Below are positions 35,053 to 41,284 of a stretch of DNA of 64,000 bases, in pieces. A program made the position numbers and the translations under genes. The stretch spans positions 3,243,001-3,307,000 of the forward strand of contig NZ_CP060298.1 in NCBI RefSeq assembly GCF_014303395.1, written 5' to 3'. Within the stretch, counting starts at the first letter, position 1. Each line of letters opens with the position of its first letter. This stretch comes from Nakamurella sp. PAMC28650. GTDB taxonomy: Bacteria; Actinomycetota; Actinomycetes; Mycobacteriales; Nakamurellaceae. The notes beneath the pieces are model-generated. The model searched no databases. It was not told where the DNA came from and saw only the letters and a program-made list of their open reading frames with translations.

Positions 35053-36305
35053 GCGAACATCTGTCGGCCGCGGTAGGTGCGGCGGCGGCGGCGGCCCGAC
35101 GGGAACTGTCGGGCCGGGTGCTCGCCGCCACCCTGCGCACCGTTCGCGACCTCGACATCGCCGAGGAATCGACGGCGGACGCCTTTCTGCTGGCGTTGCA
35201 GAGTTGGCCCACTACTGGCATTCCGGCGTCCATCGAGGCCTGGTTGGTGACGGCGGCCAGGCGTCGGGCGGTGGATCGCATCCGCCGTGCACAGGTGGCC
35301 CGGCGCTCGCTGGTGAAGCTCGCCGGGGGATGGTCAGGCGTCACCGGTGTCTCCGATGTGGTGGCCGAGGCCGCGATCGTCGGCGACGACGAGCTCCGGA
35401 TGGTGGTCCTGTGCTGCGATCCGCGGCTGGCCGTCGGTGATCAGGTCGCACTGACCCTCCGGCTCGCGTGCGGGGTCAGCACCGCTGGAATAGCTGCCGT
35501 GCAGGGTGTTTCGACGCCGACGATGGCAGCCCGCCTGACCAGGGCCAAGGCGAAGCTGGCTGCCGCCGGTCCCAGGCTGGAGCTGCCGGACGACGCCACG
35601 GTGGATGCGCGGCTCCCGGCGGTGGCCACCGTGGTGTACCTCGCTTTCACCCTCGGCCACACCGCAGCCGACGGGAAGGCCCTCACCGACGACGATCTCG
35701 CCGACCGGGCCCAGTACCTGGCCGGTGTCCTGCATGCCCTGCGCCCCGCCAGCGCGACCTTCACCGCGCTGCTGGCGCTGATCCTGCTGACCAGGGCGCG
35801 GTCGGCCGGACGGTTCGATCCGGCGGGGTAACAGGTCCTGCTGGCTGCCGCCGACCGCACCAGCTGGGACCAGGCTCTGATCCGGACCGGGACCTCGCTG
35901 CTGGCAACGGCCTCGGCACGCGCTCCGATGGACCCGATGGTCCTGCAGGCCGCCATTGCCGCAGAGCACTGCAGCGCAACGGATTTCACGGGTACCGACT
36001 TCCACCGCGTGGTCGATCTCTATTCCAGACTGCTGTCGGTCGATCCATCGCCCGGGTTCGCGCTCGGCCGGTGCGTGGCGCTGTCCTACGCGGCCGGGCC
36101 GGCGGCCGGCCTGGCAGATCTAAACGAGGTACTGGCCCTGCGGGTGCTCGATGCCTACCCCTACGCGGCGGCCGCCCGCGCCCAGATGCTGCAGCGACTG
36201 GACCGGACGGCCGACGCCGATCTGGAATGGACACGTGCCGCCCGTCTGGCCCGCACCACCGCTGAACGGAGCTTCTTCCTCGCGCAGGTGCAACTCAGTC
36301 CTTGA
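35049..36305 (+). pseudogene. ECF sigma factor (COG4941/DUF6596 type) with an in-frame TAA
   Basis: The frame encodes sigma region 2 (IAEESTADAFLLALQSWP, AARRRAVDRIRRAQ), region 4 (AVGDQVALTLRLACGVS), and the start of the long C-terminal domain typical of this sigma group. TAA at 35829-35831 interrupts it. In the same frame the protein continues with VLLAAADRTSWDQALI, LQAAIAAEH and TAERSFFLAQVQLSP to a stop at 36305. The N-terminus is uncertain: GTG 35118 is the first usual start, but similarity-like sequence runs back to a CTG overlapping the YCII stop. Both genes of this operon carry one stop codon each. Confidence 0.78.
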
Positions 36306-36513: not shown

Positions 36514-36607
36514 CTACGGTGACTCCTTCACATCATCGGGAAGACGTCCGTCCATTGTGCGCTATGCCGGCTCTTCGAACTTGGTAGACATCCCATGTCG
36601 AGTCGTG

Positions 36608-37870
36608 TCAAGCAGCTGAGGTCATCGGTTCCCGCGTGTTGATGGGTTCGGCCGGCCACGCTACTGTCTCGTCATAGAGGGTGCCAGAGTCTAGGCACCC
36701 GTGGAGGATGCCGACCAGGCGGTTGGCAACCTGGCGGAGAGCGGCGTGGTGGTTGGTTCCCCTTGCTCGGATGGTGTCGTAGTACGCGCGGGTACCTGGT
36801 GATCCGTTGAGGGCGCCGTATGCCTGCAGGTGCAGGGCCACTCCGAGTCGGCGGTTCGTGGCGTAGCGGGCCATCACCGTGGTCTTCTTCCCCGATGCGC
36901 GGGTAATCGGGCTTTGGCCAGAGTAGTTCTTCCTGGCGCGGGAGTTAATGAATCGCGTGTCGTCGTCCCCGAATTCGCCCAGTACCCGGGCGGCCAGGAT
37001 TGGTCCGAGGCCCGGCTGGCTCAGGTAGATCTGGGCGGCCGGGTGTCGATCAAAATTTTGTGTCATCACAGCCTGCAGTGCAGTGATCTGCTCGTTCAGT
37101 GCTGTGAGCACCTTGACCTGGCTGGCGACCACGGCGGCGTAGGCCGCCTCGAGGGTGGGAGGTTGCCGCAGAGCTGGTTGCCGCAGCAGTGCTCGCAGTG
37201 GTTCGACCCGATCGTCCACGTGGTGTCGGCGAGCTGCGGTCAAGGCCGACACCACCTGGCCACGGGTCAGTTTTGCGGCTCGGTCAGGGTCAGGTGCGCG
37301 ACCGAGCAGGATCAGCGCATCGGCGGCAGCCAGATCCGGGAATGCCTGCACCGCAACGGGAAAGAATTCCAACAGCGCTGACCGCATCCGTAAGGTGTGA
37401 CGAACTCGTTCCCAGATGAGGTTCTGGTGGGCGCGGGCCAGCAGCTTCACTGCATCGGCCAGATCGGTGTCACCGGCGATCTCGCGGTGGTGATCTCGGT
37501 CGACGCGGACTATTTCTGCCAAGACGTGAGCATCACCGGCGTCGCTCTTAGCACCGGAAGTGCTGTGCCGCTCCCGGTAGCGGGCCGAAGACATCGGGTT
37601 GATCGCGAACACGTGATAGCCGGCTGCCCGCAATGCCACCACCCACGGACCGCGGTCGGTCTCGGTGCCGACGAAGACCAGGTCCGCGGCCAGCTCTGGC
37701 GTGAGGTCCGTCCAGTCGCTCGGGGCGTGCTGAGCGATCAGCTCATGGAGCCTGGAGATCCCGGGCAATCCCTCCGGGAGCCTGGCTTTGCACAAGCGCC
37801 GCCCGGTCTCATCCTCGATTTCGATGTCGTGGTGATCTTCGGCCCAGTCGTCGCCGATCATCAACCGCAT
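36608..37870 (-). CDS. IS110-family transposase (element A)
   Basis: A 420-residue recombinase with an N-terminal RuvC-like DEDD domain. The acidic residues are visible in MIGDDWAEDHHD, FVGTETDRG and GAKSDAGDAHVLAE. The C-terminal Transposase_20 domain has PGLGPILAARVLGEFGD and the serine-containing NYSGQSPITRASGKK. The ATG at 37870 matches the start of the other copy; a longer frame exists. IS110 recombinases integrate a circular form at sites chosen by an element-encoded bridge RNA. The two transposases are clearly homologous but differ at many positions. Confidence 0.93.
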   Translation of the reverse strand: MRLMIGDDWAEDHHDIEIEDETGRRLCKARLPEGLPGISRLHELIAQHAPSDWTDLTPELAADLVFVGTETDRGPWVVALRAAGYHVFAINPMSSARYRERHSTSGAKSDAGDAHVLAEIVRVDRDHHREIAGDTDLADAVKLLARAHQNLIWERVRHTLRMRSALLEFFPVAVQAFPDLAAADALILLGRAPDPDRAAKLTRGQVVSALTAARRHHVDDRVEPLRALLRQPALRQPPTLEAAYAAVVASQVKVLTALNEQITALQAVMTQNFDRHPAAQIYLSQPGLGPILAARVLGEFGDDDTRFINSRARKNYSGQSPITRASGKKTTVMARYATNRRLGVALHLQAYGALNGSPGTRAYYDTIRARGTNHHAALRQVANRLVGILHGCLDSGTLYDETVAWPAEPINTREPMTSAA

Positions 37871-37912
37871 TGGCCCAGTCCTTCCGTTGTCCACAGCCTT
37901 GATGGAACACAC

Positions 37913-38104
37913 GGCAGCATGCGGTGGCTTCTGCGACCTAATGAACCAGTGCTCACGTCAACCGCCCGGGCACGACATCTCATCAGCAGTTCGAGCCGCC
38001 GGCAACCGGTGGGCGCACGGTCTACCAATAGGCATCCCCGAAGTGGCGGTGCCCGGGGCTAGAGGAGTGCTGACCCACCGGCTGCTGTCGCAACCAAGCC
38101 TCGC
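37913..38104 (-). ncRNA. putative bridge RNA of IS110 element A
   Basis: The non-coding left end is highly conserved between the two IS110 copies, more evenly than the spacer next to the start codon. It can fold into two loops. An outer stem GGTGGG/CCCACC plus GCAC/GTGC encloses TTGGTAG (complement of 38022-38028). This is the reverse complement of CTACCAA at the element's right-hand junction, seen as TTGGTAG at 36581-36587. A second loop contains GATGTC, equal to the right end, and TCGCAG, antisense to the first bases of the left end (CTGCGA). These are the placements expected of target and donor guides. Confidence 0.65.
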
Positions 38105-38121
38105 AGATGTGAGACCCGATT

Positions 38122-39568
38122 GCTCTCATTAGGGCTGGGGTGGCCTGACGGGCGGCGGCGCGTCGGCGGGGTTGAGGGCTGGTAGTCCTTGCAAACTGGT
38201 TGTTCTCACGCATCCAGACCGAAGGACCACCAGCCATGGATCAGGGTAGTTCACTGCTGTTAGGAATCGAAGGATTGCAGGTCATCGACGTCCGGTTGGA
38301 CGCGGACGGCCGGCGGGTCGCCCAGTGTGTGACGGACCCGGAATTGGCGGGGTGGTGCCCGCAGTGCGGTGAGCAGTCCAGCTCGCCGAAAGGCTGGGTC
38401 ACGACGCGGCCGAGGGACGTGACGATCGGACCGGATGTCCCGATCCTGTTGTGGCGCAAACAGAAGTGGCACTGCAAAGTCGTCTGGTGTGAACGGAAGT
38501 CGTTCACCGAATCGCTGCCGGGCATCCCCGCCCGGTCCCGGTTGACGACCCGGCTGCGGCAACGGGCCGCCGAGGCGATCGGCGAACACACCCGGTCGGT
38601 GTCCGACGTCGCCGGCGAGTACGGCATGACCTGGCCGATCGCGCACCGCGCGTTCGTCGCGTACGCCGAGCTGATGATCCCCGTTGCCGGGCCACCGCCG
38701 GCCGTGACAGTGCTGGGCATCGACGAGACCCGCCGCGGCAAGGGCCGCTACGAGATCGCGACCGACACCGGGGTGAAGGTATGGATCGACCGGTTCGACA
38801 CCGGGCTGGTCGACATCAGCGGCCCTGGTGGGCTGTTCGCGCAGGTCAACGGCCGCAGCTCCAAGACGGTCATCGAATGGATCGAGGCTCAGACCGATGC
38901 GTGGCGGGCCGGCATCACGCACGTCGCGATCGACACCTCGGCGACCTACGCCAAGGTCGTCCGGGAAGCGCTGCCCCACGCGATCGTCATCCTGGACCGC
39001 TTCCACCTGGTCGCCTTGGCCAACCGGGCCGTCACCGACTACCGGCGGGAACTGGCCTGGACCAACCGCGGCCGCCGGGGCCGCAAGATCGACCCCGAGT
39101 GGGCGCGGGCGCAACTCCTCTGCTGCGCGCCGGCGAGACGCTGACCGCCGCGGAACGGGTCAAGATGTTCCAGGCAATGAAGGCCGCCGACCCCACCGGC
39201 GGGTTGCACAACTGTTGGCGAGCAAAGGAACTGCTCCGTCACCTGCTGAAGCTGGCCGGCACCGAACCAGACTGGGCGCTGGTCTGGCAGCGACTCACCG
39301 ACTTCCAGATGTTCTGCGCCGACCACATCGACATCGGCGCAGATCCGCCGCCTCGCGCAGACCGTCGACGACTGGCGATCCTCCATCATCGAAGGGATCT
39401 TCACCGGCATCAGCAACGGCCGGTCCGAAGGCTACAACCGGATCGTCAAGCACATCGGCCGCATCGCGTTCGGGTTCCGTAACCCCACCAACCAGAAACG
39501 CCGGATACGATTCGCCTGCACCCGCGCATCACGCCGGGCGGCAACCACGCTCAAGCCCTAATGAGAGC
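38122..39568 (+). mobile_element. ISL3-family element
   Basis: Terminal inverted repeats GCTCTCATTAGGGCT (38122-38136) and AGCCCTAATGAGAGC (39554-39568) are perfect over 15 bases and enclose one ISL3-type transposase. The length of 1447 bp suits the family. The 8-bp flanks (ACCCGATT and TATCAAGC) do not match, so no target duplication remains. The element lies exactly between the left ends of the two inverted IS110 copies. Confidence 0.85.
38236..39561 (+). pseudogene. ISL3-family transposase with two compensating frameshifts
   Basis: The product has a zinc-finger N-terminus (WCPQCG ... WHCKVVWCERKSF), a helix-turn-helix region and the DDE catalytic core (TVLGIDETRRG, HVAIDTSATYAKVV, AIVILDRFHLVALAN). 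Near 39115-39140 the family reading moves to the -1 frame (LLRAGETLTAAERVKMFQAM), and near 39337 it returns to the first frame (IRRLAQTVDDWRSSIIEG) until TAA. Read straight, translation stops at 39144 before the last acidic residue, so the transposase is probably inactive. The ATG at 38236 follows GAAGGA. Confidence 0.85.
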
Positions 39569-39585
39569 TATCAAGCCTGAACTCT

Positions 39586-39779
39586 GGAAGGCTTGATGAC
39601 GACAGCAGCCGGTGGGTCAGCACTCCTTTAGCCCCGGGCACCGCCTCTTCGGGGATGCCTATTAGCAGACCGTGCGCCCACCGGTTGCCGGCGGCTGGAA
39701 ACTGCTGATGAGATGTCGTGCCCGGGCGGTTGGACGTGAGCACTTGTTCATTAGGTCGCAGAAGCCTCCGCATGCTGCC
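39586..39779 (+). ncRNA. putative bridge RNA of IS110 element B
   Basis: The left end conserved with element A, from GACAGCAGCC (39601) to GCATGCTGCC (39779). The outer stem GGTGGG (39611-39616)/CCCACC (39677-39682) with GCAC/GTGC encloses TTAGCAG at 39662-39668, the reverse complement of CTGCTAA at the right junction (41110-41116). This loop differs from element A at two bases, and the junctions differ at exactly the corresponding two. GATGTC (39712-39717) equals the right end. TCGCAG (39756-39761) fits the left end of element A better than that of B (CTGGAA). Confidence 0.65.
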
Positions 39780-39826
39780 CGCCCGTTCCACCAGGCCAGA
39801 CACGGACAAGGGAAGAGCTGGGGCCA

Positions 39827-41089
39827 ATGCTGTTGATGATCGGCGACGACTGGGCCGAGGACCACCACGACATCGAGATCGAGGACGACACCGGGCGGCG
39901 GCTCAGCCGCGCCAGACTGCCCGAGGGACTGGACGGAATCGCGAAGCTGCACGCGCTGGTCGCCGAGCATGCCCCCGCCGACTGGGTCGACCTCACCCCT
40001 GAGCAGACCGCCGACCGGGTCTTCGTCGGCATCGAAACCGACCGCGGCTCCTGGGTGGTCGCCCTACGAGCATCGGGCTACCACGTCTACGCGATCAACC
40101 CGATGTCCTCGGCCCGCTACCGCGACCGGTACTCCACCTCGGGGGCCAAAAGCGACGCCGGCGACGCCCACGTCCTAGCCGAGATCGTCCGGCTAGACCG
40201 AGCCCATCACCGCGAGATCGCCGGGGACACCAACCTGGCCGACGCGGTGAAGCTACTGGGCCGTGCTCATCAAAACTTGATCTGGGAACGTGTCCGGCAC
40301 GTGCTGCGCCTCCGATCGGCACTACTTGACTTCTTTCCCGTTGCGGTGCAGGCATTTTCGGATTTAGCCGCCACGGACGCCCTCATCCTGCTCAGCCGCG
40401 CGCCGGACCCGGCCCGCTCCGCCCGGCTCACCCGCAGCCAGGTGGTGTCGGCGTTGGCCGCGGCGCGGCGGCACCACATCCAGGACAAAGCCGGACCACT
40501 GCTCACGCTGCTGCACACGCCGGGCCTTCGGCAACCCGCCGCCGTGGAGGCGGCCTACGCCGCGATCGTGCTCGGCCAGGTCAAGATCCTGACCGCTATC
40601 AACGAACAGATCACCGCGATGCAGTCGGTGATGGCAGAAAATTTTGACCGACACCCGGCCGCGCAGATCTACCGGAGCCAGCCGGGCCTGGGACCGGTCC
40701 TGGCCGCCCGCGTCCTGGGCGAATTCGGCGACGACCCGCAACGGTTCGCCAACTCCCGCGCCCGAAAAAACTACTCCGGACAGAGCCCGATCACGAGGGC
40801 ATCGGGGAAAAAATCCGTCGTCCTAGCCCGGCACGCCACCAACCGCCGGCTCGGCGTCGCCCTGCACCTGCAGGCCTACGGCTCCCTCAACGGATCGCCC
40901 GGCACCCGCGCCTACTATGACGCCATCCGAGCCCGCGGAACCGGCCACCACGCAGCCCTCCGCCAAGTCGCCAACCGACTCGTCGGCATCCTGCACGGCT
41001 GCCTCGAGAGCGGAACCCTCTACGACGAAACCGTCGCCTGGAACTCCTCAGCCAGCGTCACGCAAACTGCAATGGCACCCGCCGCTTGA
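39827..41089 (+). CDS. IS110-family transposase (element B)
   Basis: A 420-residue recombinase homologous over its full length to that of element A. It has MIGDDWAEDHHD, FVGIETDRG and GAKSDAGDAHVLAE in the DEDD domain, and PGLGPVLAARVLGEFGD and NYSGQSPITRASGKK in the C-terminal domain. No frameshift or stop interrupts it, so it may be active. The stop codon lies within the conserved right end of the element. Confidence 0.93.
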   Translation: MLLMIGDDWAEDHHDIEIEDDTGRRLSRARLPEGLDGIAKLHALVAEHAPADWVDLTPEQTADRVFVGIETDRGSWVVALRASGYHVYAINPMSSARYRDRYSTSGAKSDAGDAHVLAEIVRLDRAHHREIAGDTNLADAVKLLGRAHQNLIWERVRHVLRLRSALLDFFPVAVQAFSDLAATDALILLSRAPDPARSARLTRSQVVSALAAARRHHIQDKAGPLLTLLHTPGLRQPAAVEAAYAAIVLGQVKILTAINEQITAMQSVMAENFDRHPAAQIYRSQPGLGPVLAARVLGEFGDDPQRFANSRARKNYSGQSPITRASGKKSVVLARHATNRRLGVALHLQAYGSLNGSPGTRAYYDAIRARGTGHHAALRQVANRLVGILHGCLESGTLYDETVAWNSSASVTQTAMAPAA

Positions 41090-41284
41090 CACCAATCGAC
41101 ATGGGATGTCTGCTAAATATGAAGACCCGCTATGCCCACCCCGGGGGGCCGGGAAGACCCCGTCACACGGTGGGGCTCCGGTCAGAACTGCTCGGGATCG
41201 GCGTCAACCTTCTGCCCGAGTCGCCGTCAGGATAGGCAGGGCCGACGGATCGCACAGCCCTTCGGTGAACAGGAGAGGGCGGCA

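What the first reader, a model, noticed from the sequence alone, without database searches (positions are those of the whole stretch)
36581..41116. IS110 left-end RNAs covary with each copy's own right-hand target junction
Seen: the non-coding left ends of the two IS110 copies are nearly identical, but one stem-enclosed loop reads TTGGTAG in copy A (complement of 38022-38028) and TTAGCAG in copy B (39662-39668). The DNA at the outer junctions reads CTACCAA for A (complement of 36581-36587) and CTGCTAA for B (41110-41116). Both are perfect 7-base antisense matches, and the two bases that differ between the loops are the two that differ between the junctions. Known: IS110 elements such as IS621 use a bridge RNA whose right-target guide is antisense to the core (CT) plus right target. 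Inference: these are two natural bridge RNAs with different programmed targets, preserved next to the sites they selected.
Basis: partly seen in the sequence, partly recalled or inferred. Interest (0 to 1): 0.85.

Follow-up and report, generated by a model that had tools for sequence, protein, structure and literature searches.

The report
Paired RNA-guided elements occupy transposon ends
Two related jumping genes that probably find their landing sites with a small guide RNA sit in the two opposite ends of a third jumping gene, and their guides differ at just the two letters by which those two ends differ.

Summary
Loops TTGGTAG (A) and TTAGCAG (B) are perfect antisense matches to their own right junctions. 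In the 60 of 102 examined loci where both ends were recognised, guide and junction match in 59 or 60 of 60 at each of four programmable bases and in 37 of 60 at a fifth. The left-end RNA has a covarying two-loop structure like published IS110 bridge RNAs.

CTACCAA and CTGCTAA are inner parts of the left and right terminal inverted repeats of the ISL3-family element between A and B, which has its own 8-bp duplication (GCTATGCC) outside both repeats. Uninterrupted repeats exist elsewhere in the genome. The four A copies sit in left repeats and the four B copies in right repeats of two ISL3 types only 63% identical, so each end type was entered at least twice.

Mechanism: ordinary bridge-RNA-guided insertion. 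IS110/IS1111 elements that target transposon ends are known. I did not find described two sister elements, each with a guide fitted to one end of the same transposon. Filed as a new member of a known kind, with that division of labour as the twist.

The parts
36561..36568 (+). left copy of the 8-bp target duplication of the ISL3 element (GCTATGCC)
   Evidence: identical to 41129-41136; outside the ISL3 tips
36569..36587 (+). outer 19 bp of the ISL3 left inverted repeat (GGCTCTTCGAACTTGGTAG); its last 7 bases are, in complement, core CT plus right target of A
   Evidence: uninterrupted repeat at genome 3648396
36588..38132 (-). IS110 copy A, 1545 bp, from CT|AATGAGAGC (left) to ATGGGATGT (right)
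   Evidence: A1, A2 (window) and A3 identical; boundary from empty sites
36608..37873 (-). IS110 transposase A
   Evidence: Pfam DEDD_Tnp_IS110 and Transposase_20; NCBIfam IS110 RNA-guided transposase above cut-off
38022..38028 (-). right target guide of A, TTGGTAG
38057..38063 (-). left target guide of A, TCTAGCC (followed by CC at the core)
   Evidence: position set by eye against the better-matching left guide of copy C; moderate match to left target CCCAGCC
37938..37944 (-). right donor guide of A, TCATTAG, antisense to its own left end CTAATGA
38133..39557 (+). interior of the ISL3-family element (type I) with a frameshifted transposase gene (302 aa from 38236)
   Evidence: Pfam ISL3 domains; frame comparison
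39558..41109 (+). IS110 copy B, 1552 bp
   Evidence: B1-B4 identical
39627..39633 (+). left target guide of B, TTTAGCC (followed by CC at the core)
   Evidence: position set by eye as for A
39662..39668 (+). right target guide of B, TTAGCAG
39708..39717 (+). left donor guide of B, ATGAGATGTC, resembling its own right end ATGGGATGTC (9 of 10)
   Evidence: by inspection
39748..39754 (+). right donor guide of B, TCATTAG
39827..41089 (+). IS110 transposase B, 80% identical to A
41110..41128 (+). outer 19 bp of the ISL3 right inverted repeat (CTGCTAAATATGAAGACCC); first 7 bases are core plus right target of B
41129..41136 (+). right copy of the ISL3 target duplication (GCTATGCC)

Best explanation
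A and B are IS110-group insertion sequences. The non-coding left end of each is very likely transcribed as a bridge RNA (inferred, no transcript data), whose target loop holds a left and a right target guide and whose donor loop reads the element's own ends. A's right guide (UUGGUAG) pairs with CT-ACCAA in the left inverted repeat of an ISL3-family element; B's (UUAGCAG) pairs with CT-GCTAA in its right inverted repeat. The transposase inserted each element at that CT core, right end outward, leaving 19 bp of repeat outside. The outcome is ISL3 tip / A / ISL3 body / B / ISL3 tip. Shown: element boundaries, empty sites, guide-target match, repeated occupancy of the fitting end, covariation across relatives. 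Inferred: RNA expression, recombination activity, and whether the ISL3 element can still move with its ends split.
For: Guide-junction match across 60 loci and 27 distinct guides. All 12 exact matches to the tip pattern in the genome: 4 left tips carry A, 4 right tips carry B, 3 left and 1 right are empty; a further right repeat with a changed tip is empty at 5047824. A is identical in ISL3 types I and II, and so is B, although the two ISL3 interiors are only 63.1% identical (887 of 1406 aligned bases) and the bases on both sides of A or B are those of the respective type: at least two independent insertions at each end type. Perfect 8-bp duplications outside the composite at 3 of the 4 IS110-bearing ISL3 loci tested. 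RNA: 20 of 41 pairs with double changes, 94.6% of cells paired, 0 of 500 shuffles as good on any of five measures. Right donor guide covaries with the element's own left end (23 distinct pairs: position 6 22, position 7 19, shuffle maxima 18 and 17). Transposases pass the IS110 Pfam and NCBIfam cut-offs; the only two solved relatives found are ISCro4 and IS621. Copy C in the same genome: right guide GGGTGAG and CTCACCC, left guide TTCAACCT and left target TTCAAC-CT.
Against: Left guides of A and B fit only moderately (best match 6 and 5 of 7) and carry CC, not CT, at the core. No Rfam bridge-RNA hit. Single-sequence folding is unremarkable (z -1.30 for B; -2.16 for A). One of the four IS110-bearing ISL3 loci tested lacks a target duplication, as does the empty hybrid at 5046-5048k. 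42 of 102 loci could not be used in the guide test. No RNA or activity data.
Confidence: 0.94

Rival explanations
1. Hitch-hiking only: A and B each entered an ISL3 element once, and the whole composite was then copied by ISL3 transposition or duplication. The guide-junction agreement would rest on two events and the repeated occupancy would say nothing.
For: The three complete A copies are identical, the four B copies are identical, and ISL3-I interiors differ by at most 3 of 1425 bases; composites have 8-bp duplications at three places.
Against: The same A and B sit in two ISL3 types only 63% identical, with the bases of the respective type on both sides, so each end type was entered at least twice. 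One ISL3-I copy has B but no A (3645-3648k). The relation holds for 27 distinct guides.
Confidence: 0.03
2. CTRCYAA is part of the IS110 element itself (a variable right end), so loop and junction agree because both belong to one element.
For: The four A copies share CTACCAA and the four B copies share CTGCTAA.
Against: The same bases occur in uninterrupted ISL3 repeats with no IS110 present, and flank sharing runs to the ISL3 tip, where the 8-bp duplication starts.
Confidence: 0.01
3. Protein-directed end targeting: the transposases recognise ISL3 repeats (or an ISL3 transposase bound there), and the RNA match is incidental.
For: All eight copies of A and B with a right end are in ISL3 ends; five other genomic sites reading S-CC-CT-ACCAA are not occupied.
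Against: Guides match junctions in relatives whose flanks do not read like ISL3 tips: the right-end-plus-tip pattern matched none of the 80 named relative loci or the class-search loci used in the guide test. The A/B difference follows the two repeat bases. B has no S-CC-CT-GCTAA site outside ISL3 to choose.
Confidence: 0.03

Closest known systems
IS621 and the IS110-group bridge RNA system (Durrant et al. 2024, PMC11208160; passages seen)
   Same: left-end RNA with target and donor loops; CT core included in the guides; 5' side of each loop reads the left part and 3' side pairs with the top strand over 4-7 nt; guide-target covariation over thousands of elements
   Different: the target here is a transposon end; transposases match IS621 only weakly by sequence (E 5.6e-05); here matching ends four to five bases after the core
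seekRNA of IS1111 and IS110 elements (Siddiquee et al. 2024, PMC11187229; passages seen)
   Same: RNA from the non-coding region guides target choice; each element has its own target
   Different: a reprogramming experiment in the passages seen uses ISEc21; the word ISL3 does not occur in the main text
[quoted passage not shown] title seen in reference lists, paper not held)
   Same: elements of the wider family inserting into a transposon's terminal inverted repeats
   Different: IS1111 group and Tn21 family; whether pairs with different guides occur there I could not check
IS1383 in the inverted repeats of IS1384 (Muller et al. 2001; title seen in a reference list)
   Same: one insertion sequence has another one's inverted repeats as its specific target
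   Different: as far as the title tells, one element for both repeats; here two elements with different guides

Membership tests
IS110 family, IS110 group | DEDD N-terminal domain plus Transposase_20 C-terminal domain | tested here: met
   Pfam both domains in A and B; NCBIfam NF033542 149.6 (B) and 161.3 (A) bits, cut-off 140
IS110 family, IS110 group | long non-coding left end and short right end | tested here: met
   B: 269 bp left of the gene, 20 bp right of it
IS110 family, IS110 group | insertion at a CT core | tested here: met
   occupied and empty sites compared for A in types I and II and B in type II and type I
IS110 bridge RNA | conserved two-loop RNA structure in the left end | tested here: met
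   27 sequences, 41 pairs, 20 with double changes, 0 of 500 shuffles as good; structure derived from the same alignment
IS110 bridge RNA | right target guide antisense to CT plus right target | tested here: met
   60 loci
IS110 bridge RNA | left target guide equal to left target | tested here: met
   mean best match 5.73 of 7 over 62 distinct loops against 4.29 shuffled, maximum 4.60; individually moderate for A (6) and B (5)
IS110 bridge RNA | right donor guide matches the element's own left end | tested here: met
   91 loci; positions 1, 2, 4 and 5 were imposed by the search pattern, positions 3, 6 and 7 match in 89, 90 and 86 of 91; among 23 distinct pairs 21, 22 and 19 against shuffle maxima 21, 18 and 17
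IS110 bridge RNA | left donor guide matches the element's own right end | tested here: inconclusive
   9 of 10 bases in B by inspection; no statistical test made
IS110 bridge RNA | RNA is transcribed and needed for recombination | not testable with these tools
   no expression or activity data
ISL3 family (the target element) | ISL3 transposase domains | tested here: met
   three ISL3 Pfam models above their cut-offs; NCBIfam 174.7 bits, just under the 180 cut-off, on a frame cut by a frameshift
ISL3 family (the target element) | GG(C/G)TCTTC inverted repeats and 8-bp target duplication (family features recalled) | tested here: met
   duplication at 3 of 4 IS110-bearing loci tested, not at the empty hybrid; tips

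The most novel reading that the evidence does not exclude
A and B are a co-adapted pair: sister IS110 elements that evolved end-specific bridge RNAs (a two-base switch, A's version shared with relative D) tracking the standing difference between the left and right repeats of an ISL3 group, and that also spread as passengers because the ISL3 element can still be moved by its outer 19 bp.
Probability: 0.3. Interest if true: 0.62.

Novelty: new member of a known kind. Interest (0 to 1): 0.45.

Why it matters
It is a clean natural experiment on bridge RNA specificity: two right guides that differ at two bases are found only at ends with the fitting two bases, in eight of eight copies in one genome, with empty sites present. 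Both differences are transitions such that A's guide could still form G-T and U-G wobble pairs with the right repeat, so its absence there bears on how strictly natural bridge RNAs discriminate. It also gives a pair of native actinobacterial recombinases with known targets and shows how a guide-bearing parasite can take up residence in both ends of another transposon.

Tried and rejected
Rfam search for a known bridge RNA family: none; only two Ms_AS-4 hits below that family's cut-off. Plasmid search for the composite: 123 records match parts at 60-80% identity, none covers 80% of the query. IS110 right end followed by an ISL3-type tip in 397 genomes of the order (drawn from a larger group): 8 places in the own genome and one hit in each of two others. 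One (G484) looks like ordinary coding sequence by eye; the other (G611) has an IS110-like right end but no ISL3 repeat in the same register. So the arrangement is so far seen in this genome only, which weakens the idea of a widespread co-adapted pair. The tip pattern alone was found in 8 of 394 genomes of the class, the own genome included. In three of the other seven (unnamed, same order) four places read by eye like ISL3 right repeats with TTAGCAG and no IS110; in the other four genomes the hits do not look like ISL3 ends. For two of the four places a left repeat could be read, with TTGATGG and TTGGTGG, not A's TTGGTAG; no transposase test was made there. Tree of A, B, C, D and two relatives: A groups with D (support 89), so which guide is ancestral is undecided. 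Whether composites moved as units could not be decided because the copies are identical. My first estimate of ISL3 type I/II similarity (83-88%) was inflated by the identical IS110 stretches inside the alignments; one search gives 63.1%. Dropped rows: 42 of 102 loci, of which 36 had a right guide but no recognised right end, 2 a right end but no recognised guide, 4 neither; a number of these lie at contig ends. The tool found 327 relatives and kept the best 80.

Full report
What is there. The window holds two IS110 transposase genes facing outward (A, 36608-37873 on the minus strand; B, 39827-41089 on the plus strand; 80% identical proteins) with an ISL3-family transposase gene between them. 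Each IS110 has a long non-coding left end towards the middle and a very short right end outward.

Copies in the genome. The window lies in a single-contig genome of 5,629,850 bases at 3243001-3307000. It has four B copies identical over 1552 bp. It has four A copies: three are identical over 1545 bp, and the fourth is interrupted by a 1,687-bp insert. There is also a 71% identical relative C, a truncated relative D, and one distant IS110 (31% identical) that I did not analyse. The four A copies read TTGGTAG and are followed by CTACCAA; the four B copies read TTAGCAG and are followed by CTGCTAA.

The junctions are ISL3 ends. Right of the junction the copies share a stretch of 19 bases that ends in GAAGA(G/C)CC, the inverse of GG(C/G)TCTTC, and then diverge. 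In the window the next 8 bases on both sides are GCTATGCC; the loci at 2726-2732k and 3651-3656k have their own perfect 8-bp pairs (GCCATTGG, CCCAACGC). The locus at 3645-3648k (B, no A) and the empty hybrid at 5046-5048k do not; the fifth IS110-bearing locus, at 2687k, was not tested. Uninterrupted repeats exist: left type I at 3648396 and 5046404, left type II at 5052645, right type II at 5048497, and right type I with a changed tip at 5047824. Read from the tip, left repeats are GGCTCTTC....TTGGTAGGG and right repeats GG(C/G)TCTTC....TTAGCAGGG. The two guides therefore differ at the two positions where the two ends differ.

Independence. A (identical) sits in the left repeats of ISL3 types I and II, and B (identical) in their right repeats. 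The two ISL3 interiors are 63.1% identical (887 of 1406 aligned bases) and their transposases about 50-53%. The bases on both sides of A and B are those of the respective type: left target CAGCC and GGCCC for A, CAAGCC and ACGCCC for B. So each end type was entered at least twice. Occupancy: of 12 exact tip matches in the genome, 8 are occupied, each with the fitting element. The genome has five further S-CC-CT-ACCAA sites outside ISL3 that are free, and no S-CC-CT-GCTAA site outside ISL3.

Guide-target covariation in relatives. I processed 102 loci: 80 of named genomes (best 80 of 327), 1 from the genus search and 18 from the class search, and three own copies. Of these, 60 gave both a guide and a right junction. 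Matches at positions 3-7 were 60, 59, 60, 59 and 37 of 60. With one row per distinct guide they were 27, 27, 27, 26 and 17 of 27, against shuffle maxima of 18, 15, 21, 18 and 16. Positions 8-10 show no excess. Left guides: mean best match 5.73 of 7 over 62 distinct loops against 4.29 in shuffles, maximum 4.60. The donor loop also fits: the right donor guide against the element's own left end matches in 89, 90 and 86 of 91 at positions 3, 6 and 7, the positions not imposed by my search pattern. Among 23 distinct pairs, positions 6 and 7 exceed every shuffle (22 and 19 against maxima 18 and 17), while position 3 (21) only equals the shuffle maximum.

RNA structure. RNAalifold on 27 left ends gives two stem-loops; 20 of 41 pairs show changes on both sides. 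With that structure counted as given, 94.6% of cells pair and no shuffle of 500 equals any of the five measures; sliding by 1-3 columns gives 36-50% paired. The structure was derived from the same alignment, so the slide control leans its way. Single-sequence folding energies are not striking.

Mechanism. The anatomy equals the published IS110 scheme: the 5' side of the target loop reads the left target, the 3' side is antisense to core plus right target over 4-7 nt, and the core CT is shared (PMC11208160, passages). Here the 3' guide covers CT plus four to five bases. Expression and activity are inferred.

What is known and what is not. Insertion of family members into terminal inverted repeats is known for IS4321/IS5075 in Tn21 transposons and IS1383 in IS1384 (titles in reference lists). 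My seven literature searches (listings, plus passages of two papers) showed no account of IS110 elements in ISL3 ends or of a pair with one guide per end, but most subscription papers are not in that library and I did not open the other listed papers.

Limits. The arrangement was found only in this genome among 397 genomes of the order. The ISL3 gene of the window is frameshifted relative to the free copy at 5046k (open frame 322 against 461 aa), and the three type I copies beside A/B have no indel between them. Copies with this frame therefore reached more than one place, either moved by another ISL3 transposase or duplicated otherwise; I cannot tell which. Relative D carries A's right guide but its left flank does not read like an ISL3 repeat, and it has lost its right end, so the element group may not be confined to ISL3.

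Noticed in passing
window 40678-40759 (-) and 36932-37019 (+): Rfam hits to Ms_AS-4 below that family's cut-off (40.1 and 29.4 bits, cut-off 50) lie antisense inside both IS110 transposase genes; that family may describe an RNA antisense to IS110-type genes.
   Followed up: no
window 38236-39144; genome 5046.4k: The ISL3 transposase in the window is frameshifted (322-aa open frame) compared with the free type I copy (461 aa); the other two type I copies beside B have the same length and frame.
   Followed up: partly
L024, genome 2726261-2729492: The fourth A copy is interrupted by a 1,687-bp insert with ends reading CCTCGATCAGTGGACCTG.
   Followed up: no
L027, genome 1031707-1033215: Copy C (71% identical) is a third guide-target pair in the same genome, with both left and right guides matching its flanks.
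   Followed up: partly
window 35118-36305: A sigma-factor-like open reading frame (ECF type, weak hits) seems split into two frames just left of the ISL3 insertion.
   Followed up: no
L065, near the IS110 match: The IS110 in Ornithinimicrobium murale is flanked on both sides by the same sequence (GCGGTAGCGTCCGCTC), as if it lay in a repeat.
   Followed up: no
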